NCBI GenBank assembly: GCA_029552545.1
Contig: JAKPDO010000019.1
Span: forward strand, 186,001-250,000
DNA: 64,000 bases
Origin: Planctomycetota bacterium
Lineage (GTDB): Bacteria > Planctomycetota > Phycisphaerae > Sedimentisphaerales > Anaerohalosphaeraceae
Direction: 5' to 3'
Part shown: one piece after another, positions 19,167 to 32,143 of the stretch
Position numbering within the stretch: the first letter of the stretch is position 1
Layout of the letters: every line of letters begins with the position of its first letter
Notes under the pieces: generated by a model
What the model saw: only the letters and a program-made list of their open reading frames with translations
Databases searched by the model: none
What the model was told of the DNA's origin: nothing
Made by a program: the position numbers and the translations under genes

Positions 19167-19252
19167 AAAAGTCTGTTACTGCTTCGTGCTTTCCATTGCG
19201 GTCCTCTGAATCGGACTGGACAAGACAGCTCGTTTTGCGTACAGTAATTCTT

Positions 19253-20197
19253 ATGAATCCCTATCCATTAAAATTAAAACCGATTTTTAAAGAGCGTATC
19301 TGGGGCGGCCAGCGTCTGCGGACCTTATTCGGCAAAGACCTGCCTGCCGGAAAGCCCATTGGGGAAAGCTGGGAACTGGCTGATTTGCCGGAGGATAAGT
19401 CCGTGATTGCCAACGGTCCGCTGGCTGGACAGACCGTTGACCGGGCAATTCATTTATTTGGGCGGGCCCTCGAGACAGGACGTCCCGGTCCGTTTCCGCT
19501 GCTGATAAAACTGCTGGATGCGAGGGAAGTGCTCAGTGTTCAGGTCCATCCGGATGAGCCAACCTGCCGTCGTATGGGGACAGGGCAGCCCAAAACGGAA
19601 TGCTGGTATATTCTGGATGCACCATCGGACGGGATTATTTACAAGGGTCTCAAGCCCGGCACGACCCGAGAGCAGTTCGCTCGGGCTGTTGCGGAGGGGA
19701 CTTGTGCGGAGTATCTGGTGGCTGTCCCGGTGAAACCCGGCCAGTGCCATTTCCTGCCCAGCGGAACCCCACACGCCATCGGCGCCGGTCTGGTCATCGC
19801 TGAAATCCAGCAGCCCTCCGATACCACCTATCGCGTTTTTGACTGGAACCGCCTCGACCCCTCCACAGGCAAACCCAGGGCCTTGCATATTCAACAGGCC
19901 CTCGAAAGCATTCATTTTGGGGTATCCGCTGACGAGCTTCCTGTGACTACGGTCGGCCGCCTGGTCGATGCCCCTGAATTCAAACTTGATAAAGGGCATC
20001 AAATGCCCAAGGGCGAACTCCTGCTCGAATCTCCCGCTCCCAAAGCCGTCCTCTTTTTGACCGGTGCCGGGCTCATTCAGGGCCCTCATTTTGACCCGAT
20101 TGCTTTCCAAAAAGGAGATACGATTTTAATTCCCGCCGGCGTCGAAGGGTTTGTGCTCTTTCAGGAGGAAACGGAGTATCTGACGGCTTCTGTGTGA
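19253..20197 (+). CDS. manA: Mannose-6-phosphate isomerase, class I
   Basis: A 314-residue cupin-fold enzyme interconverting fructose 6-phosphate and mannose 6-phosphate, feeding GDP-mannose and glycan synthesis. Zinc-site motifs are present: VLSVQVHPDE, KTECWYIL and LPSGTPHAIG. The length and motifs match the short bacterial class I form. The start is MNPYPLKLKPIFKERIWGG, the family's usual beginning; the upstream 19 codons are not conserved. It lies between the nucleotide-sugar dehydrogenase and the NusG paralogue. Confidence 0.93.
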   Translation: MNPYPLKLKPIFKERIWGGQRLRTLFGKDLPAGKPIGESWELADLPEDKSVIANGPLAGQTVDRAIHLFGRALETGRPGPFPLLIKLLDAREVLSVQVHPDEPTCRRMGTGQPKTECWYILDAPSDGIIYKGLKPGTTREQFARAVAEGTCAEYLVAVPVKPGQCHFLPSGTPHAIGAGLVIAEIQQPSDTTYRVFDWNRLDPSTGKPRALHIQQALESIHFGVSADELPVTTVGRLVDAPEFKLDKGHQMPKGELLLESPAPKAVLFLTGAGLIQGPHFDPIAFQKGDTILIPAGVEGFVLFQEETEYLTASV

Positions 20198-20223
20198 AAA
20201 AAACAGAGAGGGAGAAACCATCG

Positions 20224-20772
20224 ATGCTGAAAGAAAGCGAAAATCCCCCGATCATCTGGCCTGAGGGACGCTCGATAGATTCCTTCGAGGGAACCTGGTG
20301 GGTAGCTCACACCAAAAGCCGCAATGAGAAGGCCCTTGCCTGGCAGCTGGTTCAAAAAGAGGTTTGCTACTTTCTGCCGATGTCCTGGAAAATCAGCCGC
20401 AAAAGCAGTCGAACCTTGCGCTCCCTGATGCCTGTCTTCCCCGGTTATCTGTTCTTCTGCGGCACCGAACGGGACCGGCTAGAGGTTCTCAAGACGAACC
20501 GCACCGCCGGCATTCTGACTGTTCGCAACCAGTCTCAGCTGGTTCAGGAACTGCTGCCGATTGAAAAGGTTTTGCGGAGCGGCCGGACTGTTGTACCTCA
20601 CGAGTTTCTTCGGGTAGGGCAGCGATGCCGTGTCGTTGCCGGCCCCCTTATGGGCATTGAAGGGCTTATCGTCCAGACGCCCAGAAAGGCCAAACTGGTT
20701 CTTCAGGTCCAAATGCTCGGCCAGGCCGCCAGTGTCGAAATTGATATGGATATGGTTGAACGAATCGAGTAA
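20224..20772 (+). CDS. NusG-like antiterminator paralogue (RfaH/UpxY type)
   Basis: A 182-residue NusG-family protein. The NGN domain has WWVAHTKSRNEKALAWQLVQ and PVFPGYLFFCG, and a C-terminal KOW domain has RVVAGPLMGIEGLIVQ. Specialised paralogues of this family promote transcription of long polysaccharide operons. The gene follows manA; an alternative GTG start (20194) overlaps the manA stop, but the ATG behind GGGAGAAACC is preferred. No long polysaccharide operon follows in the window, so its target must lie elsewhere. Confidence 0.85.
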   Translation: MLKESENPPIIWPEGRSIDSFEGTWWVAHTKSRNEKALAWQLVQKEVCYFLPMSWKISRKSSRTLRSLMPVFPGYLFFCGTERDRLEVLKTNRTAGILTVRNQSQLVQELLPIEKVLRSGRTVVPHEFLRVGQRCRVVAGPLMGIEGLIVQTPRKAKLVLQVQMLGQAASVEIDMDMVERIE

Positions 20773-20818
20773 ACTGGTTCCGGTGTTTCCTTTTGACCTT
20801 CTGAAACGGAGGTGCTCG

Positions 20819-21196
20819 ATGGAATACAGCATTAGTATCATCGGTCTTCTGACGGCGGTCTGGGGTCTTGTTGTTGTGATTCAGCCGCTCTGGCACAAGA
20901 CGCTTATCGGCTTCTTCGCACGGGGGCGTCGGGCCTATGCAGCCGTGGTTTTGAAAATCGTTGTCGGGGTTCTTTTTCTTCTTTATGCCCGCCAGTGCCG
21001 TATCCCGTCTGTGATTATTGTTCTCGGCATCCTTACCGTCGTCGGCAGCGTCCTTTTCGCCGCTATGCCGATTACCAGAATCCATGCCTGGTTCCAATGG
21101 TGCCGAAGCCGTCCTCTTTGGTTTTACCGTCTCTGGGCTGTGGCGGCGGTCCTGCTCGGCATTCTGATTCTTTATGCCGGCTGGCCGGTCTCGTGA
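20819..21196 (+). CDS. Four-helix membrane protein of unknown function
   Basis: A 125-residue hydrophobic protein with GGAGGTGCTCG before its ATG. Four membrane segments can be seen: SIIGLLTAVWGLVVVI, AAVVLKIVVGVLFLL, SVIIVLGILTVVGSVLFA and LWAVAAVLLGILILYAGW. It resembles small DUF2065-like proteins in size and shape, but I cannot assign a family. It is co-directional with the NusG-like gene and ends shortly before the promoter of the protease-like gene. Confidence 0.75.
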   Translation: MEYSISIIGLLTAVWGLVVVIQPLWHKTLIGFFARGRRAYAAVVLKIVVGVLFLLYARQCRIPSVIIVLGILTVVGSVLFAAMPITRIHAWFQWCRSRPLWFYRLWAVAAVLLGILILYAGWPVS

Positions 21197-21202
21197 ACAG
21201 CG

Positions 21203-21231
21203 TTGATTTTTTCCGCTTTTTCTGCTATAAT
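21203..21231 (+). promoter_or_regulatory. Promoter of the subtilase-like gene
   Basis: TTGATT (21203-21208), a 17-base spacer and TATAAT (21226-21231) form a near-consensus sigma-70-type promoter 44 bases before the chosen ATG. Confidence 0.7.
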
Positions 21232-21274
21232 CCCCCTGTCTGAATAAATGGAGTGGCGGAGGAGAATGAGCGGA

Positions 21275-22948
21275 ATGCACACAGTAAGGAGTTTGACGGG
21301 AGTTTGTGTCTTTTTTTACCTGTTCGCCTGCCGAACCGCTTATCCTTTGGCCGAATCCGCCGACCCGAACGGCATCAATGTCAAAGTCCTTCACCAAATG
21401 GGCTATACGGGCAAAGGAGTGCGTGTCGGCGTGCTTTCCCAGATGCACTGCCGTACGACCCACGAGGCCTTTTTTGACAAAGACCTGCAGGGCAACCCTA
21501 TCGGCAATTCACATGTCTATTGGTATGATCCGACCTCGGATACAGTCCAGCCCTATGAACCTTACTGGCACGACACTTCTTTGGCGGGCATCATTGCTTC
21601 ACGCGGGGGCAAAGAATTTCCGCAGCATCGCGGGATGGCCCCCGATGCCGAAATCTACAGTGCCAAAGTCACCCGCCGTGTTTCCGAAACCGACCCCAAC
21701 CGAACCACAAATTTTCAGTGGTTTCAGAAATCGCTGGATTATTTCCGCTCCAGCCAATGCCGAATCGTCGTCACCGGTATTCAGCTGGGGGCGGATTATG
21801 ACCAATTATTTCCGTTCACCTTGCTGTACGATTATTACACATACACCCACGGTATCTTTTTTGCCAATGCCGCCGGCAACGACAACGGTTCTGTCACCAT
21901 CTTCGGTACCGCTTTCAATGGTGTGACAACGGCGGGCCTGATTACGACCGAACCGGATGTCTATCGGCGCATCGGCTCGGCAAGCAATCCCGGCCCGACG
22001 CTGGACGGCCGGCGCAAACCCGAAGTCGCCGCCCCTGCACAAAACCTAATGGTCCCGACTGACGGCAGTGATACCGCCTGGGGGAGTGAGGGTACAGAAC
22101 GCGGCCAAACCAGCTGGGCGGCCCCCCATACCGCCGGTGCCGCCGCTGTTCTGCTGGAGTATGCGGATACCACACCCGAACCGGATGACGGCCGCAGCGT
22201 CGTCCTCAAGGCCGTCTTGGTCAATTCCGCCTTTCCGAATATTCAGGACAAAACCGGCCTGGAAACCACCGGACAGCTATGGCATCCGCATCGCGGTTAT
22301 GGTCGGCTGGATGCTGCCCGCGCCTTTTCGATTCTGAGCAGCCCAAAAATCACAATCGGCCAGGAGATTTCTCAGCCGCGCGGCTGGGCTTTTCAGTCCC
22401 TTTCGCCCGGCCAGACCCATATCTACACGCTCACGTCCATCCCCATTGGCAGCCGGCTGGTCCTGACCCTCACGTGGAATCGGCGTGTGCGCTGGCAGGA
22501 TAAACCGCCCCGCAACAATCTCATTGATAATGGGGAATTGACCGGTTATCTGGCCAACCTCGAGTTGCTGATTGAAGACTCCGCCGGCCGGACCGTTTTT
22601 TCGGATACAGGCACGCTCGACAACCTCAAGAAAGCCGACCTGCTGATTCCTCAGACGGGGCTGTACCGCATCCGCATCCGCAATCAGTCTTCGACGGAAA
22701 CAGCCGAATATGCGGTGGCTTACGAAATCCTCGAACCCCTGACGGCGGATTTGAACCTCGATGCTGTTGTGGATAAGGCCGATTTGGAAATCCTTCTGCA
22801 ATCCTGGCTTCAGAACCCATGTGGGATTCCCTTTGACGGATGCAGTCGGCTCGACTTGCTGGCCGATGACTTCATCGATTTGGGGGATTTGAAAATCCTG
22901 GCTGGTTTTTGGAAAACCAGCGATCCCCGGTACTATGTCCTGCCGTAA
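21275..22948 (+). CDS. Subtilisin-like (S8) exported protein with dockerin-like C terminus
   Basis: A 557-residue exported protein with signal peptide MHTVRSLTGVCVFFYLFACR. The S8 fold is clear: GYTGKGVRVGVLSQM, HDTSLAGIIASRGG (catalytic His about 99), FFANAAGNDNGS (oxyanion Asn about 202) and RGQTSWAAPHTAGAAAVLL (Ser about 280). The expected Asp of the first motif (V-I-D-T-G) is replaced by Ser (VLSQM, about residue 55). After a beta-sandwich region comes a dockerin-like pair (DLNLDAVVDKADLEILLQSW, FIDLGDLKILAGFW). The start is the ATG correctly spaced from GGAGGAGA. It may be an inactive or unusual subtilase acting outside the cell. Confidence 0.85.
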   Translation: MHTVRSLTGVCVFFYLFACRTAYPLAESADPNGINVKVLHQMGYTGKGVRVGVLSQMHCRTTHEAFFDKDLQGNPIGNSHVYWYDPTSDTVQPYEPYWHDTSLAGIIASRGGKEFPQHRGMAPDAEIYSAKVTRRVSETDPNRTTNFQWFQKSLDYFRSSQCRIVVTGIQLGADYDQLFPFTLLYDYYTYTHGIFFANAAGNDNGSVTIFGTAFNGVTTAGLITTEPDVYRRIGSASNPGPTLDGRRKPEVAAPAQNLMVPTDGSDTAWGSEGTERGQTSWAAPHTAGAAAVLLEYADTTPEPDDGRSVVLKAVLVNSAFPNIQDKTGLETTGQLWHPHRGYGRLDAARAFSILSSPKITIGQEISQPRGWAFQSLSPGQTHIYTLTSIPIGSRLVLTLTWNRRVRWQDKPPRNNLIDNGELTGYLANLELLIEDSAGRTVFSDTGTLDNLKKADLLIPQTGLYRIRIRNQSSTETAEYAVAYEILEPLTADLNLDAVVDKADLEILLQSWLQNPCGIPFDGCSRLDLLADDFIDLGDLKILAGFWKTSDPRYYVLP

Positions 22949-22985
22949 TTGCTTTTTGGGTGAAGTTCTGTCAAGCCGGGGGTTG

Positions 22986-24269
22986 TCATTGCTGCAGCGG
23001 CGGGGCGATCAGATAGATGGTTTTTTTCTGTCCGGCAAGGTCGAGAACGAGGGTTCCTTCCCCGTAGCCGGTCATGTCCGCCGGCCGTTCTATTGTAAGC
23101 TGAATCTGCCCCTTGTCGGCGATTTGCTCCCTGAGCTGATGGAGCACCAGCCCGCCCCCATCAAACTGATGGCCGCCCAGAACCGGTCCGGATGCTGCGT
23201 TGTCCATCTCCACCGTCAGAACATACTCTTTTCGCCCCGGCTCAATCCAGACATATTCGGGGGAAATGACGGGTGATTGTTTTTCGACGGTCTGGGTCTG
23301 CTGCGCCAGGAGCTGCTGTGCCTTTAGGGCGGCCTCGGCCAGCTGCTCGTCCGTCGCCGCCGGCGGCAAACACACTTTTTGACATTCTCCTGTTGTTTTC
23401 TGTTCCGAAGATTCCAATGGGCTCTTTTTGGAAGGAACCCGATATTCGACTCGGCGAATCCGGTCTTCAACCCAAAGCCCTTCCGGAAATTCAATATCTA
23501 ATGACTTGGCATCGAACGGAATATTCACTTCAATTTGTTCGACCCTGTATTCCGTATAACTGGAATTCGGTATCAGTGATGTATATATCATAGGCACCCA
23601 GAGTCCCTGAACCTTGCGCCAATTGAAACTTTGTTCACGAGCGAACATTTTTTTATCAGGGAAAAGGATTTCGTATTGAACAGGAACATAGTCTTTAGCA
23701 GGGTCAATCCAGATTCGCAGCCATGGAGATTTGGTGCCGCCATGGATCTGGAATTCGTATACATAGCACTTCGCGGACGCATCATAGAAAACCGAAGCCG
23801 TATCGACTCGCTCCCAAAGCCGCTCCCAACTATAGGATGCCATCCCCCATATGGCCTGATAGACAGAATAAAAAAGAGGGGCCTGAATCTGGCCTTTTTG
23901 TACAATCAAGCCGTAAATGTCATTGGCTTCCTGGACAATCTGTTTTTCATAGTCTATACCAAAAAAATACTGAATTCTTTGATCGTTTTTTCTGCCGCTT
24001 GCAAGGGTACTGCGGACATCTGCAAAACACCCGTTTGGTGCCTGTTTCCAGATAAACGTCCTTTCCGTTCGCAGTTCTTTTTTTTCCTGCTCTTGGCCGA
24101 TTAGATAGGCTCGGCAGGTGACTGTCGCTGACATATGAACATACCGTGCCTTCGAAGCCTCCATTAAACGAATGAGCTGAACGGCGGAAAGCTCATTCTG
24201 CGAAAAGGCAAGTTCTGAGAAAATGAGAAGCGGAATGACGACGGTTGCGGTTTTTTGATTCTTGCACAT
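22986..24269 (-). CDS. LolA-like exported protein (module 3)
   Basis: A 427-residue exported protein with signal peptide QKTATVVIPLLIFSELAFSQ and AAGGAGAAAACAGG before the ATG. The body resembles Planctomycete LolA/outer-membrane-lipoprotein-sorting-like domains: YVHMSATVTCRAYLI, FDAKSLDIEFPEGLWVEDRI. A Gln/Ala-rich linker and a C-terminal beta domain (EYVLTVEMDN, IQLTIERPADMTGYGEG) follow. It shares architecture with the proteins at 25158-26324 and 27495-28613. Each such gene directly follows a Cys-rich secreted protein gene; this one follows the C39/GG-motif gene by 50 bases. Function is unknown. Confidence 0.75.
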   Translation of the reverse strand: MCKNQKTATVVIPLLIFSELAFSQNELSAVQLIRLMEASKARYVHMSATVTCRAYLIGQEQEKKELRTERTFIWKQAPNGCFADVRSTLASGRKNDQRIQYFFGIDYEKQIVQEANDIYGLIVQKGQIQAPLFYSVYQAIWGMASYSWERLWERVDTASVFYDASAKCYVYEFQIHGGTKSPWLRIWIDPAKDYVPVQYEILFPDKKMFAREQSFNWRKVQGLWVPMIYTSLIPNSSYTEYRVEQIEVNIPFDAKSLDIEFPEGLWVEDRIRRVEYRVPSKKSPLESSEQKTTGECQKVCLPPAATDEQLAEAALKAQQLLAQQTQTVEKQSPVISPEYVWIEPGRKEYVLTVEMDNAASGPVLGGHQFDGGGLVLHQLREQIADKGQIQLTIERPADMTGYGEGTLVLDLAGQKKTIYLIAPPLQQ

Positions 24270-24319
24270 AACCTGTTTTCTCCTTATTTTCTTATAAGGG
24301 AGTTTCCTCACTATCTCCA

Positions 24320-25024
24320 CTAGTTCCCTCCACTAGCTCCAATACATCTTGATACCTGGCTTCCACAGTCCCACGTGCCGCCTGAGGATTGATATACAGT
24401 GCATACCCCATTTTCACAAGCACCGGTCAGATGCTGCTGGGGATCGCAGTTATGGGCATTAAGATTTATGCAGAGCTGCCACCAGTGATTGCCGGGTTGA
24501 CAACTTTTGCCGATGGTTTCGTCCGCACAATATCTGTCAGCCAGATCACATTCTTCCGCAGTTTTGCACGTCGGAATATTTTTGCATACTTGTTTATTTG
24601 GTGCGCATATACTTCCCAAAGGACACCCTCCTTTGATATTTTGCATCTGTTTTTGGGACAATTCTGCATAGTACGCGGAGATTTTCTCTATCTCCTTGGA
24701 GACATCTGCATCCTCTTTCACGAACCATGCATACGCTGCATGGATGGCGGCCTGCCAGGAAATTTGCTCCGTCAGCAATCTTTCCAGATACTCCTGCCGC
24801 TGGGTCTGAATCAGCAGCAGCGTCCCGTCCCAGATTCCCTCCTGTTCTTGACGGAGCATTGTGCAAGAGATTAATCTCGGCTCCTTCGGCCCGTCCAGAA
24901 TCAGCACGTGCTCCTGCTGCGGAATACACAGCACAAAGTGTCCCAGCATGCCCTCTTTCGGCGGCAGACGATACTGCACAAACGGCAGTTTCACATCAGA
25001 AGCCTTCTCCGGCGGAATCTGCAT
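24320..25024 (-). CDS. Partial peptidase-C39-like domain fused to a GG-motif and Cys-rich tail
   Basis: The frame is open from about 25096; the first ATG gives 234 residues but lacks a clear ribosome-binding site. The upstream codons (LQDISNVCSLYGISIQAMQI) plus LPPKEGMLGHFVLCIP and HVLILDGP resemble the second half of a C39 peptidase, with the HF and D motifs but without the N-terminal half that carries the catalytic Cys. After a helical region comes LSQKQMQNIKGG, a double-glycine leader-like motif. A Cys-rich tail of about 95 residues follows. It is probably a 5'-truncated gene or a deliberately minimal form. Confidence 0.6.
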   Translation of the reverse strand: MQIPPEKASDVKLPFVQYRLPPKEGMLGHFVLCIPQQEHVLILDGPKEPRLISCTMLRQEQEGIWDGTLLLIQTQRQEYLERLLTEQISWQAAIHAAYAWFVKEDADVSKEIEKISAYYAELSQKQMQNIKGGCPLGSICAPNKQVCKNIPTCKTAEECDLADRYCADETIGKSCQPGNHWWQLCINLNAHNCDPQQHLTGACENGVCTVYQSSGGTWDCGSQVSRCIGASGGN

Positions 25025-25157
25025 GGCTTGAATAGATATTCCATACAGAGAACATACATTCGAAATATCCTGCAGGGTCGAAGCTATCTGATGGATCTAT
25101 TCTGTCTTGATTCCATCCTGTCTCTTGTCTTGGAATCAGGTATTTTGCGGTCCTTGC

Positions 25158-26324
25158 TTATTTTTCCCAAACAGCAGAGACATTCTGCACCTCTTTAAAC
25201 GCAGAATCGGATTCCTTATATTGAAATATTCGTTTCTCAATTTTATCCATTAAAAGATCCCTATCCTTCAGGTGCAAATTTTTATAACTAAATTGCTCCG
25301 GAGGAATCGGCTGATTCACAAGATTTTGAACGAATGTCATTTTCTTTTCCCGGATGAGTCTGCCGGCAGCATCATATTGTTTTTCGATATAGACCTTCGG
25401 CAGAAAAACCCCTTCCAATCGCTCATATTGCCAGATGTATTCTGTAAGCAGCACCCCATCGCCCCGAGTAATTTCCCATTTGGTGAAATTATAACCGCAT
25501 TCTTTCGAGCAGAGTTTCGTTGTTACCACATAATGGTCAGGCTTGTTTCGTTCAAGATTGACCACTGCTGGATGGACAATTTTGAAATACTCTTGATTGT
25601 CTCTTTTTCCTTCATAGATCTTATACGAATAGCCGTCGAATTCGATCTTTCCCTCTCGCTGAATTTTATCCAGAATAAATTCGAAACTCTTCCAAGGGTA
25701 AGTTCCGCCGGGTGTAAACAAAAATCTGGGGTCATTTGAATCTTTATAAAAACCTGTTAGAGGGTCCTTTTTAGAGGGGATTCTCTCTGCACGGCTTCCC
25801 GCTATTTTTTTCTCTTGGGGATTGATGCTTTGGGGCTCTGCCCGAAGAAGATAATCCGGAGTTGCCAGGCAGGTCAAGCGATAAGGATTCGCTCCTTTAT
25901 TTCCAAGATCCTGCCCGGTAGCAGCGTCCAGGTAACGGCTGGGTTCGGACCGGAACGAGTCTGTATAAACAAATTGTTTTGGAACATCCACGGCAAACTC
26001 AAACCGCTCCTGGATGATCTGAAAGACCTCATCCGGACACCGGCCTTTCCCCTCTGTAAACGAATGAAAGATCTCTTCAGCATTTTTTCCCGTATGGAGA
26101 TAATGGATTTCTACATCGGCCTTCCCTTTCCAGGTTTTGATCTGGTTGTAATTTTCCTGCATACGGGTCCCAAGCAAATTTAAGACGGCTGTCATATCGG
26201 ATGAGTTTGAAATTTCCCGCTCATTGTTCTCCGGCTCAGATGCGAAAGAAGAAACAGAAAATCCTATCAAGGGTTGTGTGAGAACAATAACAGATACAAC
26301 AAATATCCCTTTAATCTTTTTCAT
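25158..26324 (-). CDS. LolA-like exported protein (module 2)
   Basis: A 388-residue exported protein with AGGAGATATACC before the ATG and signal peptide KGIFVVSVIVLTQPLIGFS. It is a clear paralogue of 27495-28613: both have a W-x-G strand (IKTWKGKADVEI), an EPSRYLDAATGQDLGNKG motif, a late EYIWQYERLEGVFLPKVYIE stretch and a C-terminal FSYKNLHLKDRD. Such folds carry lipids or lipoproteins in LolA, but the substrate here is unknown. The gene follows the Cys-rich gene by 21 bases and is almost certainly co-transcribed with it. Confidence 0.8.
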   Translation of the reverse strand: MKKIKGIFVVSVIVLTQPLIGFSVSSFASEPENNEREISNSSDMTAVLNLLGTRMQENYNQIKTWKGKADVEIHYLHTGKNAEEIFHSFTEGKGRCPDEVFQIIQERFEFAVDVPKQFVYTDSFRSEPSRYLDAATGQDLGNKGANPYRLTCLATPDYLLRAEPQSINPQEKKIAGSRAERIPSKKDPLTGFYKDSNDPRFLFTPGGTYPWKSFEFILDKIQREGKIEFDGYSYKIYEGKRDNQEYFKIVHPAVVNLERNKPDHYVVTTKLCSKECGYNFTKWEITRGDGVLLTEYIWQYERLEGVFLPKVYIEKQYDAAGRLIREKKMTFVQNLVNQPIPPEQFSYKNLHLKDRDLLMDKIEKRIFQYKESDSAFKEVQNVSAVWEK

Positions 26325-26345
26325 GGTATATCTCCTGCTCCTATT

Positions 26346-27230
26346 TTATTTGCAATCACATGTTTCACGATAGTACGTGTCAATCACTTCGCTGCTTGGC
26401 TCACATTTCACGCAGCCGGTAAGAAGATTACAAGCGACTGTAAGAAGACAATTCCCGATGCTGAAATCACAACCGGATGGGCCGGAATTCAGAAGGGGCA
26501 CACAGAACAATTCATCCTGGCAAAGCATACACAGTTGATTTTCCTGAAAAGTTCCGGTGCAAAATTTCCGCTGATAACAAATTTCGCTGCGGATATTCCA
26601 ATCTCTCTGAGGACATCCTTCATAACATTCTTTGATCTTTAACCCGGTATAATCGACCCAGTGAAACTCCCAGCATTGAGGGCTGAAAAATGGAGGAGTA
26701 CACCCGGGGCACCTTTCGTTTTCATCTTTCATTTCGCTGCAGCTTTCGGTGTCTGTAATTTCGTCACGACAGGGCTGCACACAATAATGAGAATAAGGAT
26801 AGGCGAGATAAAAACAGCACTCCTCGCCAGCGTTACAACAGACGCCTTCCTGAAGATCCCCGCAGCAAAATTGATTGGCACGGCAGCAATTTCCTCCGCA
26901 ATTTCGCGGTCTGCAGCCGCCGTCTAGACAGCATTCTGTTTGCTTATTGCAGGCAGTTCCATCGCCGTACCCGCAGCATACCTGTTGAGAAGTCGAATAA
27001 CATCCTTTGTTGTCACAACAGGCAAGCCCTGCAACCCCGCCGCACTCCACGCACACATTATTCTTGCAGGACTCACATCCCTTGCATTGATACACACAGT
27101 TCGGCGAAACCCAGACATAACACGGCGGGCAGGGCGGCGGGGGATAGGCAAGCAGAAAATCGGTAAACAGAAGCACCGTTGCCGACAGCAGAAATCCGTT
27201 ATGTCCTGTATTGCTCCCTTGTCTCTTCAT
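26346..27230 (-). CDS. Cys-rich secreted protein (module 2)
   Basis: A 294-residue protein with AAGGAGG before the ATG. The leader MKRQGSNTGHNGFLLSATVL is followed by PPPPCPPCY. The mature region is packed with cysteines in CC and CxxC spacings (GLACCDNKGCYSTSQQVCCG, NCCRANQFCCGDLQEGVCC), which recalls granulin or knottin-type disulfide-rich folds; the second half is less dense. It is not a metallothionein, as it is exported and rich in aromatic residues. The leader is almost identical to that of 28652-29560 while the mature regions differ. No function is known. Confidence 0.8.
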   Translation of the reverse strand: MKRQGSNTGHNGFLLSATVLLFTDFLLAYPPPPCPPCYVWVSPNCVYQCKGCESCKNNVCVECGGVAGLACCDNKGCYSTSQQVCCGYGDGTACNKQTECCLDGGCRPRNCGGNCCRANQFCCGDLQEGVCCNAGEECCFYLAYPYSHYCVQPCRDEITDTESCSEMKDENERCPGCTPPFFSPQCWEFHWVDYTGLKIKECYEGCPQRDWNIRSEICYQRKFCTGTFQENQLCMLCQDELFCVPLLNSGPSGCDFSIGNCLLTVACNLLTGCVKCEPSSEVIDTYYRETCDCK

Positions 27231-27260
27231 CGGCAAACCTCCTTCCCCTCCAGCAGCCGG
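27117..27260. repeat. 144-bp direct repeat, copy A (Cys-rich leader)
   Basis: This matches 29447-29590 at 138 of 144 bases with no gaps. It covers the first ~38 codons of the Cys-rich gene, its ribosome-binding site, and on the far side the last codons (LLEGKEVCR) of a small TPR gene that exists whole only beside copy B. That remnant shows the direction of duplication: copy A derives from copy B. Confidence 0.9.
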
Positions 27261-27494
27261 TGGTACAATGAAGGCAACTTTCACTCAGATGAAGAAAGCA
27301 TCATAGTTTACCAACTTTCTGGGAGTTGAATTCCCTTGTTTGAATATTTTGTGTTTTCCTTATCATCGTATCTCCCGCAGAAACAATGAGTGATTCAGGG
27401 CACCAATTTCTTCTTCTCAAGTTAATATACAGGATAGATTTCTTCCATTCCTCTATCCTCCCGTTTCGTTCTTCACTCCTGCCTTGCTGAAATA
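27231..27494. other. Intergenic region between the two Cys-rich modules
   Basis: It contains the TPR-gene remnant next to copy A of the repeat and then about 230 bases with no convincing coding sequence. It probably holds the promoter of the downstream operon 27230-22986 on the minus strand, but no clear -10/-35 pair was identified. Confidence 0.4.
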
Positions 27495-28613
27495 CTATTG
27501 CTCATCCTTAGTAACTTCTATAAGATTACCTTTTTGGTAAATAAACTCTTTGTTTGTGATTCTGTCCTCAATCTTATCACCATCTGCCAAGCCGAGGTTT
27601 TTATAGGTGAAGGTTTCCGCAGAGATATCTTCATTTATACGAATATTCTTGAATACTTTTTCCTCAGTACTTTGCAGCGTAAAGTCCTTGGGATTGTAGT
27701 TCTCTTTCGTACTTCTAATCGGCACGTACACATCATTTATATTCTCATACTCTATGCTCTCCTGTTGTATCAGCTTCCCGCCATCAGCAGTAATCATCTT
27801 ACAAGAGATTATGTTATAACCTGCATTGGCAGAGAAAGTTTGTACCATCCATATATTTTTGATACCGAGAGCATTTAATCTGTATGGACGATGTATGCGG
27901 TATAGCAAATCACCAGGAAGGGTACACTGCTCAACTCTCATAACTAACCCATCAACTCCATATTCTCCTTCTTTTTCCATAGTTTCCGCGATAGAATGAT
28001 AGATATTCCATGCCTGAGAGTCGATATCAAATAGATACTTTGGAAGATAAGCGGGTTGAGCCCCCTTACACGAAAGACCATCCGTGTCTATAATTGCCTT
28101 GTCTATAATTGCCTTACTTTCTATAACTTTCCCTTCCCTGTATCGCACCGGCTCTGTATGAATCTGATAGTCCTTGTTTACAATGATGCTGCTGGAGCGG
28201 CCCCGAGACTTTGTCCCAAGATCTCTGTTGTCAGCCGGGTCAACGTAGCGAGTCGGTTCCTGCCGGGTAACTTTAGAATAGAATAAACCTTTTTCCAAAT
28301 CGCACTTAAAAATGATCTTACTAATCATTATCTCGACAACTTCGCTTGGGCAGGGACCAACAGCGTCTGTCATCGTCTTAAAGGTCTCCTTGGCCTGTTC
28401 TCCTTTATCAATAAAGAACCTTGAGGCCTCTAATTCACCTTGCCAACTCCTTATTTTCTCGAAATTTTGTTTCGATTGGTTCGATACAATTCTAAGAATG
28501 CCCGGAATTCTCTCAGTTTCAACAAGCTGAAAAGTCTGATTGGGCTCGGCTGCTAAGCTGCACATTAGAAAAATATGTACAAGATCCATAAGATTGATTA
28601 TTAAAATTTCCAT
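27495..28613 (-). CDS. LolA-like exported protein (module 1)
   Basis: A 372-residue exported protein with GGAGACGGAT before the ATG and a hydrophobic N terminus (IINLMDLVHIFLMCSLAA). It is paralogous to 25158-26324: IRSWQGELEASRFFID, EPTRYVDPADNRDLGTKS, YENINDVYVPIRSTKE and TFTYKNLGLADGDKIEDRI match the same positions. It lies 38 bases after the CC-repeat protein gene. The region is more AT-rich than the housekeeping genes nearby. The partnership with a Cys-rich protein is repeated three times here, which argues for a shared function. Confidence 0.8.
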   Translation of the reverse strand: MEILIINLMDLVHIFLMCSLAAEPNQTFQLVETERIPGILRIVSNQSKQNFEKIRSWQGELEASRFFIDKGEQAKETFKTMTDAVGPCPSEVVEIMISKIIFKCDLEKGLFYSKVTRQEPTRYVDPADNRDLGTKSRGRSSSIIVNKDYQIHTEPVRYREGKVIESKAIIDKAIIDTDGLSCKGAQPAYLPKYLFDIDSQAWNIYHSIAETMEKEGEYGVDGLVMRVEQCTLPGDLLYRIHRPYRLNALGIKNIWMVQTFSANAGYNIISCKMITADGGKLIQQESIEYENINDVYVPIRSTKENYNPKDFTLQSTEEKVFKNIRINEDISAETFTYKNLGLADGDKIEDRITNKEFIYQKGNLIEVTKDEQ

Positions 28614-28651
28614 ATCCGTCTCCTTTTTTTATTTTTTATCTTAGCGATTTT

Positions 28652-29560
28652 TCAAGGTGCGCACTTCTTACTTGTTACTGTTATTTCTTCGGGCTGATAC
28701 AATGGGTCCTTTTGGCAGCGTATGCAGGCGGATGTCCAGTTTGCAGGGAGACAGTCCTTTAAGAGGATCGTATCACAGTAATAATCGCCTATCAGATACC
28801 AAGTACAACGAGTTTTTGTACTGCAGACGACCTCACCGTCGTCTTGGCAGTCCCCAGGACAACCGCCTTTGCAATTGTAAATGGGGTTTCTTGTATATGA
28901 TATTGCATAATGTTCTTCGCAAACAAACCCGCATGATGGACACATCTTTGATTCGGCATAACATGTTGTGATATCCGTTTGGGGTTCACATTTTGTTGCG
29001 CAAATGCCGTCAAGACAGCATTTTGTATTTTCGGGACAAACAGTGCCGGAACCATCCCCGCAGCATTGTTCTCTATAAGGCGTATGGGGTTTATAACAGG
29101 TCAGGCCGTCACAGCACTTCTCTTCGTCCCCGCAACATTGTTTATTGCAGCATTTTTCTCTCACGCAGCATTCTTTGCCTCCACAGCATTCCTCGTTGTT
29201 AAAGCAACAGCGGCCCTGGCAGCAGTCTTCCGCACGAGGGCAGCAGGTTTCCCCGCAGCAATGTGGCCCATTATAACAGCATTTCTTGTTACAGCAGGCA
29301 CCATATGGACAGCATTTCCCGTCGCAGCAGATTCGGCTCGAACAGCATATATTGCCTGAACAGCAGTCCCCAAGACAGCAGAAATCGGGGCAACAAGTAT
29401 AACCTTGAATACCCCAGCAGAACCGATCACAAGAAGGCCAATTGCTATAACACGGCGGGCAGGGCGGCGGGGGACAAGCAAGCAGAAAATCGGTAAACAG
29501 AAGCATCGTTGCCGACAGCAGAAATCCGTTATGTCCTGTATTGCTCCTTTGTCTTTTCAT
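28652..29560 (-). CDS. CC-repeat Cys-rich secreted protein (module 1)
   Basis: A 302-residue exported protein with the leader MKRQRSNTGHNGFLLSATML and then PPPPCPPCY. About one residue in five is Cys. The first ~180 residues contain around 19 CC pairs spaced 4-8 residues apart (GNICCSSRICCDGKCCPYG, EECCGGKECCVREKCC). A second half is less dense (PSCGFVCEEHY, GGCPGDCQDD). The ATG overlaps the TGA of the preceding small TPR gene, so translation is coupled. This resembles extended granulin-like or disulfide-ladder proteins; the role (structural, adhesive or toxin-like) is not visible. Confidence 0.82.
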   Translation of the reverse strand: MKRQRSNTGHNGFLLSATMLLFTDFLLACPPPPCPPCYSNWPSCDRFCWGIQGYTCCPDFCCLGDCCSGNICCSSRICCDGKCCPYGACCNKKCCYNGPHCCGETCCPRAEDCCQGRCCFNNEECCGGKECCVREKCCNKQCCGDEEKCCDGLTCYKPHTPYREQCCGDGSGTVCPENTKCCLDGICATKCEPQTDITTCYAESKMCPSCGFVCEEHYAISYTRNPIYNCKGGCPGDCQDDGEVVCSTKTRCTWYLIGDYYCDTILLKDCLPANWTSACIRCQKDPLYQPEEITVTSKKCAP

Positions 29561-29590
29561 CGGCAAACCTCCTTTCCCTCCAGCAGCCGG
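29447..29590. repeat. 144-bp direct repeat, copy B (Cys-rich leader)
   Basis: The partner of 27117-27260, with six substitutions and no indels. It spans the C-terminal codons of the small TPR gene, the shared ATGA junction and the leader codons of the Cys-rich gene. Confidence 0.9.
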
Positions 29591-29772
29591 CCGATTGCCC
29601 ATACCATACCGGCATTGGCATCCTCCGCCCGGTCCAGAAGCCAGTTGAAATACACACACGCCGTCGCCGGCCGACCGCGAGCCAGGTTCATCTCCCCCAG
29701 CCGCATCGCCGCATACAACGCCCCCCGATCGTCCGGATACCGCTCAAACACCGTCTGAAAATCCCAGTACAT
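29557..29772 (-). CDS. Small TPR-like protein
   Basis: A 71-residue TPR-like protein (VFERYPDDRGALYAAMRLGE, ACVYFNWLLDRAEDANAGM). It is short for a TPR protein and may be the tail of a longer ancestral gene. The start is placed at MYWDFQ with GGAAAG upstream; an upstream ATG at 29811 overlaps the RCC1 gene. It is coupled to the Cys-rich gene by a 4-base ATGA overlap, and its last codons were copied with the 144-bp repeat. Confidence 0.6.
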   Translation of the reverse strand: MYWDFQTVFERYPDDRGALYAAMRLGEMNLARGRPATACVYFNWLLDRAEDANAGMVWAIGRLLEGKEVCR

Positions 29773-29794
29773 TTTATCTATCTTTCCGAACGGT

Positions 29795-30700
29795 TTATTC
29801 AGCAAGGGCATAGGCCGTTTTAGAGCCGAGGGTGATCTTTGTAAATCGTTCGGCGTTATTCAGAACCGACAGCACACTCAAAATATCAGAGGTATTCTGT
29901 CCCCAACCGACAATCTTGCCGGCCGTTGTGACAGCCATCGCCGTTTTTTCTCCGCAGGCAATTTGTTCCGTAAAATTTGTTTCCAAGGGAACATCGCTGA
30001 TTTGCTGACTGCCGTCAAATCCCCAGGGGATGATCTTTCCATCGCTTCTCAAGGCCGCGCTGAACGAATTGCCGCCTGCGACGGCCACAAAAGCCCCGGA
30101 ACTCGGTGTGTTCGCAACCGCATTTCCGAAATCATTCCCCCAGCAGACAATATTTCCGGTTTTGGTCAGAGCCAGACTATGAAACTTTCCTGCAGCGATT
30201 TTTATAAAATCGCTGCCTTTGGGGGTCTGGCTTACTTGTCCGTATCGGTCGTCTCCCCAGGAGACAATCTCCCCGTTTCGTGTGAGCGCCAGACAATGCT
30301 GGTATCCGCAGGCGATGGCAACGAAGTTCGGCTCCGACGGGGCATCGGTAACCTGTTTTTTGTTATCCGCTCCCCACACTACTATTTCCCCTCTCGAATG
30401 TAAGGCCATGCTGGTATTTCCGCCGGCCGCTACAGCGACGAACCCATCCGTCTTCGGAGCCCCTGAAACTTGATGCTGACGGTCATCACCCCAGCAAAAA
30501 ATCTTCCCTTGTGTGTTCAGGGCGATGGCGTGGTTTTCTCCCGCTTGAATCTGTGTATAATTGCTGCCGGCCGGAATTCCGGAAACCTGTCCGTATTCAT
30601 TATTTCCCCAGGCAATAATTCGGCCTGCCAAACAAATTTGCCCTGAAATGACACAAAGAACAAAACTCGCCGGTCCCCAAGAGAGCCGTTTTGAAAACAT
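29795..30700 (-). CDS. RCC1-repeat exported protein (second of pair)
   Basis: A 301-residue protein with signal peptide SFVLCVISGQICLAG and about six RCC1/BNR-like repeats of roughly 45 residues (IVSWGDDRYGQVSQTP, FIKIAAGKFHSLALTKTG), predicted to form a beta-propeller. The C-terminal unit (KIVGWGQN...LNNAERFTK) matches that of its upstream paralogue. It probably acts outside the cytoplasm as a binding propeller. It begins the series of closely spaced minus-strand genes leading into the Cys-rich modules. Confidence 0.85.
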   Translation of the reverse strand: MFSKRLSWGPASFVLCVISGQICLAGRIIAWGNNEYGQVSGIPAGSNYTQIQAGENHAIALNTQGKIFCWGDDRQHQVSGAPKTDGFVAVAAGGNTSMALHSRGEIVVWGADNKKQVTDAPSEPNFVAIACGYQHCLALTRNGEIVSWGDDRYGQVSQTPKGSDFIKIAAGKFHSLALTKTGNIVCWGNDFGNAVANTPSSGAFVAVAGGNSFSAALRSDGKIIPWGFDGSQQISDVPLETNFTEQIACGEKTAMAVTTAGKIVGWGQNTSDILSVLSVLNNAERFTKITLGSKTAYALAE

Positions 30701-30730
30701 AAAAAACCTCTCTGCAAATGGATTTTGTTT

Positions 30731-31639
30731 CTACTGAACCAGCGCATACGCCACGCCGGCCCCTACAGAGACATCGATGAAGATATATTGATTATTCAAC
30801 TTTGACAATTTGCTGAGTGTGCCCCAGTAATCCTTTCCCCAGCCGACGATTTTCCCATCTCGAGTCAGCACCATACTGCAATGCTCCCCTCCATCCAGGA
30901 TAGACACAAAATTGTTTGCGGAAGGAGTCTGAGAGACCTGCCCATCCTGGTCCCATCCCCAGGAAACAAGAGTGCCGTCTGCCTTGAGAGCCAGACTGTG
31001 ACGAGCGCCGGCGGCTATTGCAATAAAGTTATTTCCTGTGGGAGTTTTCGACACCTGACCATAGGTATCGTCACCCCAGGAGACAATCGTTCCGTCAGAA
31101 CGCAGCGCCAGACTGTGATTGTATCCCGCTGCGATTGCGATAAAGTTGTTCCCGGGGGGAGTCTGAGAGACCTGCCTGCAGTGATCCCGTCCCCAGGAAC
31201 GTAAACTCCCATCTGATTTCAGAGCCAAACTATGATAGAGGCCTGCGGCAACCGCCGTAAAGCCGGCTTCTTTAGGGGTATCGGACACTTGTCTATACTC
31301 GTCATAGCCCCATGCGGCAATCCGGCCGTCGGATTTCAAGGCAAGTCCATGGCTGACCCCTGCTGCGATTTTTACAAAACCGCCGCCGGCAGGGGCTCCG
31401 GATACTTCATTTGCATCGTTATGCCCCCACACGGCAATCCGGCCATCTGATTTCAGCGCTATACCGAATGTGCCGCCTGCCTCGACGTTGACAAAATCAT
31501 TGTCTTTGGGAAGATCGCCGATTGTACCCAATAAGTCCCCGCCCCAGCTGATAATCCGTGCTCCCTCCGACATTCCCCAAGAAAAAAGGAAAAAGACTGC
31601 CGAGCATATCCATTGCAAGCAGAAAAAACGATTCCTCAT
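30731..31639 (-). CDS. RCC1-repeat exported protein (first of pair)
   Basis: A 302-residue paralogue of the next gene, with signal peptide QWICSAVFFLFSWGMSEGA and more regular RCC1-type repeats (IVSWGDDTYGQVSKTP, FIAIAAGARHSLALKADG). Adjacent repeats are near-identical, which suggests recent unit duplication. It lies 30 bases from its paralogue and is probably the first gene of the minus-strand locus. RCC1 propellers bind proteins or nucleotides in eukaryotes; the role of exported bacterial versions is unclear. Confidence 0.85.
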   Translation of the reverse strand: MRNRFFCLQWICSAVFFLFSWGMSEGARIISWGGDLLGTIGDLPKDNDFVNVEAGGTFGIALKSDGRIAVWGHNDANEVSGAPAGGGFVKIAAGVSHGLALKSDGRIAAWGYDEYRQVSDTPKEAGFTAVAAGLYHSLALKSDGSLRSWGRDHCRQVSQTPPGNNFIAIAAGYNHSLALRSDGTIVSWGDDTYGQVSKTPTGNNFIAIAAGARHSLALKADGTLVSWGWDQDGQVSQTPSANNFVSILDGGEHCSMVLTRDGKIVGWGKDYWGTLSKLSKLNNQYIFIDVSVGAGVAYALVQ

Positions 31640-32143
31640 TGAAAACCTCCCATACTCATACAGTGTATGCTATTGAGTGTTCGTTGCCGGACTGACCGGT
31701 CATCCTGGCATGAAGACAAAAAAGCACAATCTCCTTACATCATCCCCTCTTGCGCCATACTCTGCATGCATAGCCGAAGACTTTTTGGATAGACTCCGTC
31801 CCCGTCGGCTGCAAGGGATGGGATGACTCTTACGCGAAGGACTCCTTATCCGTCTGCCTTGCCCTGATTTTCTCCTGCCTAATTGTATTCTTTCACCGAC
31901 GGCCCTGATGGATGCCCTTTGATGCTGTTTCAAAATTACCTTCCCCCTCCCGTATCTGTCAATGAAATTCGAGCCATTGTGGAGCAATCAGGAGTAATCC
32001 CCACTTTTTTATCTGGATATTCTGATAAATCCGCCGGCCGTTTCTCAATGCAGCATCACGCAAGCAACCCTCTTTTCCGGTTGTGCTTTTCCGGGTATAG
32101 TATTGTGCCATTAGTGTTAGGATATGGACAGGAAAGGATTTCC
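31640..32143. other. Intergenic region between the RCC1 gene and lpxB
   Basis: About 500 bases separate two divergent genes. A short open frame at 31710 lacks a ribosome-binding site and coding character. The interval presumably holds both promoters, but no strong -10/-35 pair was found. Confidence 0.4.

What the first reader, a model, noticed from the sequence alone, without database searches (positions are those of the whole stretch)
24320..25096. Half of a peptidase C39-like domain fused to a double-glycine leader motif and Cys-rich tail
The frame, open from 25096, reads like the His/Asp half of C39 peptidases (GHFVLC, LILDGP). After a helical region it has LSQKQMQNIKGG, a double-glycine processing motif, then about 95 Cys-rich residues. 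C39 domains cleave exactly such GG leaders. The catalytic-Cys half is missing upstream, so the gene is either truncated or the protease half is supplied elsewhere.
Basis: partly seen in the sequence, partly recalled or inferred. Interest (0 to 1): 0.65.

Follow-up and report, generated by a model that had tools for sequence, protein, structure and literature searches.

The report
Broken self-cutting, Cys-rich secreted protein gene
The window holds a broken copy of a gene whose intact relatives in the same bacterial order join, in one exported protein, a leader-cutting protease, the leader signal it normally recognises and a cysteine-rich cargo; proteases of this type are otherwise known mainly as parts of export pumps that act on separate peptides.

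Summary
Window 25096-24320(-) encodes the His/Asp half of a peptidase C39 domain (PF03412, profile 45-131 of 133), then LSQKQMQNIKGG, then a 101-residue tail with 13 Cys. Relatives show what was lost. Intact genes read: signal peptide, TPRs, complete C39 (Cys, His, Asp), double-glycine motif, Cys-rich tail, followed by a LolA-like gene. The window copy has lost the TPRs and the catalytic Cys: a 4.6-kb block with two Cys-rich/LolA-like gene pairs sits where sister genome G003 has about 580 bp.

The same genome carries a second, intact architecture, LolA-C39-G[GAS]-Cys tail, found in 87 of 161 genomes of the order (Sedimentisphaerales). Its leader obeys the published C39 substrate rule: hydrophobic at -12 (100%), -7 (84%), -4 (100%), Gly at -2 (98%), Gly/Ala/Ser at -1 (93%); the triad is present in 47 of 47. 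No C39 ABC exporter was found in this genome.

Best reading: Sec-exported proteins whose C39 domain releases the attached Cys-rich mini-protein. Cleavage itself is inferred. In the window's gene family, leader, tail and the N-terminal part of the LolA-like gene form a swapped 1.3-kb cassette, as in polymorphic effectors. The window copy itself is probably a remnant.

The parts
24320..25096 (-). Truncated TPR-C39-GG-Cys gene: C39 His/Asp half, linker helix, double-glycine leader, Cys-rich tail
24800..25081 (-). C39 half-domain (GHFVLC, LILDGP); profile positions 45-131 of PF03412; catalytic Cys absent
   Evidence: alignment
24626..24661 (-). Double-glycine leader LSQKQMQNIKGG (L-12, M-7, I-4, G-2, G-1)
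24323..24625 (-). Cys-rich tail, 101 residues, 13 Cys; presumed released cargo
22986..24320 (-). LolA-like partner gene (likely start ATG at 24269 behind AAGGAG); the same neighbour follows the C39 gene in G003, G004, G013, G117, G091 and G073
23372..24694 (-). Variable cassette against sister genome G003: leader + tail + N-terminal part of the LolA-like gene (about 41% nt identity) between flanks at 90-91%
29557..29811 (-). Detached TPR-like fragment; 29696-29726 is identical (31 bp) to the TPR part of the G003 gene: probable N-terminal remnant of the split gene
25158..26324 (-). Secreted LolA-like protein of inserted pair 2 (weak profile match to the LolA-like family)
26346..27284 (-). Secreted Cys-rich protein of inserted pair 2
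27495..28613 (-). LolA-like protein of inserted pair 1
28652..29560 (-). Secreted Cys-rich protein of inserted pair 1 (start MKRQRSNTGH)
27117..27260 (+). 144-bp repeat (96% identical to 29447-29590) over the starts of the two Cys-rich genes
29447..29590 (+). Second copy of the 144-bp repeat

Best explanation
The window gene is a 5'-truncated remnant of a Sedimentisphaerales gene family that puts a C39 peptidase, the double-glycine leader it recognises and a disulfide-type Cys-rich cargo into one Sec-exported polypeptide. In intact members a signal peptide and TPR repeats (or, in the more widespread sister family, a fused LolA-fold domain) precede a complete C39 domain. The leader helix behind the C39 domain would dock its -12/-7/-4 residues in the C39 groove, and the active-site Cys would cut after G-G/A/S, in cis or between two copies, freeing the Cys-rich mini-protein outside the cytoplasm without an ABC exporter. 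The LolA-like partner would chaperone, anchor or neutralise the cargo. In the window, the half with the TPRs and the catalytic Cys was replaced by two inserted Cys-rich/LolA-like gene pairs, so this copy can neither cut nor be exported by its own signal. Shown: architecture, conservation, truncation, cassette exchange. Inferred: cleavage, its place, the partner's role.
For: Full-length relatives have TPR-C39-GG-Cys, C39 complete and over the Pfam cut-off. Second architecture LolA-C39-G[GAS]-Cys in 87 of 161 genomes of the order. Cys, His and Asp present in 47 of 47. Leader code n=45: -12 hydrophobic 100%, -7 84%, -4 100%, G-2 98%, G/A/S-1 93%, other leader positions much less constrained, matching the published rule (PMC6363468; PMC10885120). 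C39 profiles hit ComA, PCAT1 and LahT. A confident model (pLDDT 91) gives a LolA/LolB fold plus a C39 fold, Z 13.9 to ComA and LahT. No C39 exporter in the genome. Signal-peptide-like N-termini in 14 of 14 LolA-C39 proteins tested. The tail occurs only in these C39 fusions within the order. Sister genome G003 has the C39 gene continuous where the window carries 4.6 kb.
Against: No cleavage is shown. The Gln six residues before the Cys, usual in C39 exporter peptidases, is missing in both families, although its oxyanion role is disputed (PMC6363468). In the TPR family -7 is often Gln (4 of 9). Some C39-fold proteins are not leader peptidases (CtaG and PeiR match at Z 9.4-11.8). Three LolA-C39 proteins have Leu or Met at -1. 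An export route that leaves a reduced Cys protease active outside the cytoplasm is assumed.
Confidence: 0.6

Rival explanations
1. The C39 domain binds the leader-like helix but does not cut: the protein stays whole, and the C39 part is a docking or clamp domain, as in the C39-like domains of HlyB-type exporters, presenting a covalently attached Cys-rich domain.
For: Gln at -6 from the Cys is missing in both families; HlyB C39-like domains also match the fold, Z 12.8-12.9; other secreted C39-containing proteins without a GG tail exist in the phylum (L140).
Against: Cys, His and Asp are invariant (47 of 47); the -2/-1 positions are restricted to small residues exactly as at cleavage sites, which a pure docking role would not need.
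Confidence: 0.2
2. Polymorphic effector system: the Cys-rich tail is a toxin-like or recognition module and the LolA-like gene its cognate protector or chaperone; C39 is the releasing peptidase. This is a functional extension of the best explanation for the TPR family.
For: Constant C39 (87% aa) and constant LolA C-terminus (85%) frame a swapped tail (31%) and LolA N-terminus (24%) between G000 and G003; tail and LolA-N types change together in G000, G003 and G004; breakpoints at 24694 and 23372; three Cys-rich/LolA-like pairs in one island that is absent from G001; papain-like releasing peptidases sit just before toxin domains in known systems (PMC3482391).
Against: Only three genomes show the swap; no toxin domain was recognised; the tail of the widespread LolA-C39 family is not variable (77% against 70-71% for the rest).
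Confidence: 0.3
3. The GG is only a flexible junction between unrelated domains, and the resemblance to C39 leaders is chance.
For: The generic leader models TIGR04149, NF038158 and TIGR01847 are below cut-off.
Against: The five-position code recurs in 45 LolA-C39 and, less strictly at -7, in 9 TPR-C39 proteins; linker plus leader is as conserved or more so than the C39 domain between sister species (85-90% against 69-71%).
Confidence: 0.04
4. The truncated window protein is itself functional, for instance as a substrate cut in trans by the intact LolA-C39 protein on contig C55.
For: The frame is open; dN/dS of the C39 part is 0.11, like functional genes; an intact C39 protein exists in the genome.
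Against: No signal peptide from either possible start, so it would be in another compartment than the exported C39; the pairwise dN/dS mostly reflects the time before the break; no clear ribosome site ahead of the ATG at 25024.
Confidence: 0.12

Closest known systems
C39 peptidase domains of PCAT/AMS exporters (ComA, PCAT1, LahT)
   Same: Same fold (Z 12.6-13.9), same catalytic triad, and the recognised leader has the same -12/-7/-4 hydrophobics and GG/GA/GS
   Different: No ABC transporter; leader and cargo lie in the same polypeptide behind the peptidase; apparent Sec export; Gln at C-6 absent
Double-glycine RiPP/bacteriocin precursors (TIGR04149, class II leaders)
   Same: Leader helix ending in GG followed by a Cys-rich core
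   Different: Cargo of roughly 81-104 residues fused behind its own peptidase; curated leader models not reached; no modifying enzyme noticed nearby
Polymorphic toxins with papain-like releasing peptidases (Zhang et al. 2012, PMC3482391)
   Same: Export signal, peptidase just before a C-terminal module, variable C-terminus with a downstream partner gene
   Different: No known toxin domain; a C39 with a canonical GG site; partner has a LolA-like fold
LolA/LolB lipoprotein carriers and DUF1329
   Same: Fold of the N-terminal domain (Z 9-12.6)
   Different: Fused to C39 and a Cys-rich tail; lipid or lipoprotein binding unknown

Membership tests
Peptidase family C39 (PF03412) | Sequence similarity over the curated cut-off | tested here: met
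   Window fragment 26.8 bits against 22, half the profile; G013, G003, G117, G091 and P0009 also over the cut-off
Peptidase family C39 (PF03412) | Catalytic Cys in the window protein | tested here: not met
   Profile positions 1-44 are missing; no second copy of that half in the genome
Peptidase family C39 (PF03412) | Cys-His-Asp triad in full-length relatives | tested here: met
   47 of 47 LolA-C39 proteins; all complete TPR-C39 proteins
Peptidase family C39 (PF03412) | Gln at position -6 from the Cys (proposed oxyanion residue) | tested here: not met
   Absent in both families; its role is disputed in PMC6363468
Peptidase family C39 (PF03412) | C39 fold | tested here: met
   LolA-C39 model residues 331-476, Z 13.9 to 3k8u and 6mpz; not modelled for the window fragment
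Double-glycine leader recognised by C39 | Hydrophobic -12, -7, -4; Gly -2; Gly/Ala/Ser -1 | tested here: met
   100/84/100/98/93% of 45; in the TPR family (n=9) -7 is only 44% hydrophobic; the window leader itself fits all five
Double-glycine leader recognised by C39 | Cleavage after the second residue | not testable with these tools
   Needs expression and mass spectrometry
PCAT/AMS exporter | Transmembrane and nucleotide-binding domains fused to C39 | tested here: not met
   The C39 proteins of both families contain TPR or LolA-like parts instead; no other C39 hit over the cut-off in the genome
RiPP precursor (TIGR04149, lanthipeptide leaders) | Curated leader-model score | tested here: not met
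   15.1 against 25; 14.2 against 27; 12.9 against 15.7 bits
Polymorphic toxin-type system | Constant N-terminus, exchanged C-terminal module with partner gene | tested here: met
   Cassette 24694-23372 swapped between G000 and G003; three genomes only
Polymorphic toxin-type system | Toxic C-terminal domain and immunity | not testable with these tools
   No known domain in the tail; the model of the related LolA-C39 tail gave no close PDB fold, best Z 3.3
LolA/LolB superfamily | Fold of the N-terminal domain of LolA-C39 | tested here: met
   Z 12.6 to LolB 9tpm, 11.0 to LolA3 9tp6

The most novel reading that the evidence does not exclude
A transporter-free double-glycine pathway: Sec-exported, self-processing proteins that carry their own C39 peptidase, leader and Cys-rich cargo, conserved in Sedimentisphaerales beside a pilin-like protein and a sigma/anti-sigma pair, with a polymorphic TPR branch whose cargo and LolA-like partner are exchanged as one cassette for competition between strains.
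Probability: 0.3. Interest if true: 0.8.

Novelty: new variant of a known kind. Interest (0 to 1): 0.6.

Why it matters
C39 peptidases are known mainly as the cutting domain of ABC exporters acting on separate peptides. Here peptidase, recognition code and cargo sit in one exported chain, in a gene found in about half of the genomes of a little-studied order of planctomycetes and not represented as a family in Pfam or NCBIfam. If the cut is real it gives a directly testable cis-acting C39 system, a handle on what Cys-rich mini-proteins do for planctomycetes, and possibly a new kind of exchangeable effector cassette.

Tried and rejected
Weak hits in G053, G045 and G057 at E about 0.01-0.06: the two read (G053, G057) are topoisomerase zinc-finger regions, not relatives. 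G024 hit (L008): no C39 or Cys-tail protein there. C39 hits outside the order (G458, G197) are ordinary C39 ABC exporters. A stand-alone precursor with the window's tail was looked for in 161 genomes and not found. Fold search with the LolA-C39 tail alone gave nothing above Z 3.3, so no fold is named for the cargo. Literature searches for C39 fused to its own substrate found no precedent in the held library; that library lacks most subscription papers. Model coordinates are not exposed, so the distance from the leader glycine to the active-site Cys could not be measured. The window fragment and the TPR family were not modelled, because only a few of their sequences could be handed to the predictor.

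Full report
OBSERVATION. The minus-strand frame 25096-24320 exists and is open for 258 codons. Pfam assigns residues 6-99 to Peptidase_C39, but only profile positions 45-131 of 133. That is the His (GHFVLC) and Asp (LILDGP) half; the helix with the catalytic Cys is not there. LSQKQMQNIKGG follows at 24661-24626, then 101 residues with 13 Cys. Generic leader models score below their cut-offs, so the leader claim was tested on relatives.

FULL-LENGTH RELATIVES. Searching 59 related genomes found four clear relatives, and an alignment search of 161 genomes of the order added three in another family plus a contig-edge fragment. G013 encodes 704 residues: signal peptide, TPR repeats, complete C39 (GDRFCGAYCIWHLLRHYG ... 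GHFVLC ... VVLDG), linker, IADQKLANLKGG, Cys-rich tail. G012, G117, G091 and G073 agree, allowing for contig ends and a frame break in G073. G003, the same genus as the window, has the complete C39 but also lacks a signal peptide. Pfam scores the C39 domains over the cut-off and finds TPRs. GG is present in 9 of 9 members. So the upstream half with the Cys is normal and the window copy has lost it.

HOW IT WAS LOST. The window and G003 are colinear at 87% DNA identity over 19215-23370; the C39 fragment 24695-25082 is 91% identical; and a 31-bp stretch of the TPR part is identical at 29696-29726. In G003 these last two stretches are 580 bp apart; in the window they are 4.6 kb apart. The extra DNA holds two secreted Cys-rich genes, each followed by a LolA-like gene, with a 144-bp repeat at 96% over the starts of the Cys-rich genes. 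In G001 the flanking subtilase and LpxB genes are neighbours, so the whole island is optional. The rest of the N-terminal half is nowhere else in the genome. The remnant has no signal peptide. I treat it as a broken gene. The C39 part still has dN/dS 0.11 against G003, like intact neighbours, so the break is probably recent or the function lingered.

A SECOND, INTACT ARCHITECTURE. The window's genome has one other C39 domain over the cut-off: a 582-residue protein on contig C55 made of a signal peptide, a LolA-like domain, C39, LDPMRLYEIVGG and a Cys-rich tail. Relatives occur in 87 of 161 genomes of the order, usually once per genome, and in named Sedimentisphaerales and Anaerohalosphaeraceae records. 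Outside the order I found only ordinary C39 exporters. In 47 sequences Cys, His and Asp are all present. The leader shows five constrained positions in 45 sequences: hydrophobic at -12 (100%), -7 (84%) and -4 (100%), Gly at -2 (98%), Gly/Ala/Ser at -1 (93%). This is the published C39 substrate code (PMC6363468, PMC10885120). Between sister species, linker plus leader is 85-90% identical while the C39 domain is 69-71%. No C39 exporter was found in this genome, so the only obvious peptidase for these sites is the attached one.

STRUCTURE AND CONTEXT. The C39 profiles of both families hit ComA; the LolA-C39 profile also hits PCAT1 and LahT. A model of a LolA-C39 protein (pLDDT 91, pTM 0.87) has a LolA/LolB-type domain (Z 12.6 to LolB) and a C39 domain (Z 13.9 to ComA and LahT). 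The tail modelled alone is beta-rich (pLDDT 87) with no close PDB fold found. Around LolA-C39 the order is conserved: a secreted protein, dockerin-bearing in at least some members, upstream (34 of 40 loci), a type IV pilin-like protein downstream (36 of 40), then a convergent zinc-finger anti-sigma-like gene (34 of 40) and a sigma-70-type sigma gene (31 of 40).

VARIABLE CASSETTE. Between window and G003, C39 is 87% identical in protein, the tail 31%, the first 310 residues of the LolA-like gene 24%, its C-terminus 85%. The best breakpoints are 24694 and 23372, with nucleotide identity about 91% / 41% / 90%. Since even silent sites are unalignable inside, this is exchange or very old allelism, not fast protein evolution. 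G004 shows related types of both tail and LolA-N to the window (42% and 45%), G003 is different in both: tail and partner seem to travel together, but on three genomes only. The LolA-C39 family shows no such swap.

MECHANISM. Shown: fold, triad, leader code, co-linearity, truncation, cassette exchange. Inferred: export through Sec, docking of the leader helix in the C39 groove, cutting after G-G/A/S, release of an oxidised Cys-rich mini-protein, and a carrier, anchor or protector role of the LolA-like partner. Main doubts: no cleavage data, the missing Gln at C-6, and C39-fold proteins with other activities.

NOVELTY. C39 peptidases, double-glycine leaders and releasing peptidases in polymorphic effectors are all known (PMC6363468, PMC3482391). 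Their union in one exported chain without a transporter, as a conserved gene of an order, I did not find described in the held library. I rate it a new variant of a known kind; the window copy itself is a remnant.

Noticed in passing
L127:7423-13345 (own genome contig C55): Conserved neighbourhood of the LolA-C39 gene: secreted protein, LolA-C39-Cys, pilin-like protein, convergent anti-sigma and sigma genes; kept in most of 40 loci of the order.
   Followed up: partly
window 22949-31906: Optional island (LolA-like, Cys-rich and two RCC1-repeat genes) between a subtilase and LpxB, which are direct neighbours in G001.
   Followed up: partly
L011:16077-16757: Cys-rich gene upstream of the G003 C39 gene carries CCTVHDECYGTC, a motif like the phospholipase A2 active site.
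   Followed up: no
L140:748-3063: In another planctomycete family a secreted C39-containing protein with a rhodanese-like end lies beside a gene that looks LolA-like, without GG-Cys tail; C39 and LolA-like modules may be linked more widely.
   Followed up: no
L013:12793-14073 (G004): The G004 LolA-like gene loses similarity to the window's in its last quarter, as if by a frame shift, junction or further exchange.
   Followed up: no
L024:1081-1181 (G073): TPR part and C39 part of the G073 gene lie in overlapping different frames; frameshift or assembly error.
   Followed up: no
L022:1495-3711 (G117): In the f7 family the linker before the leader resembles a dockerin repeat (FNDLLQIAANWL...GADLTGESHLSLDIQLFLRGG).
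   Followed up: no
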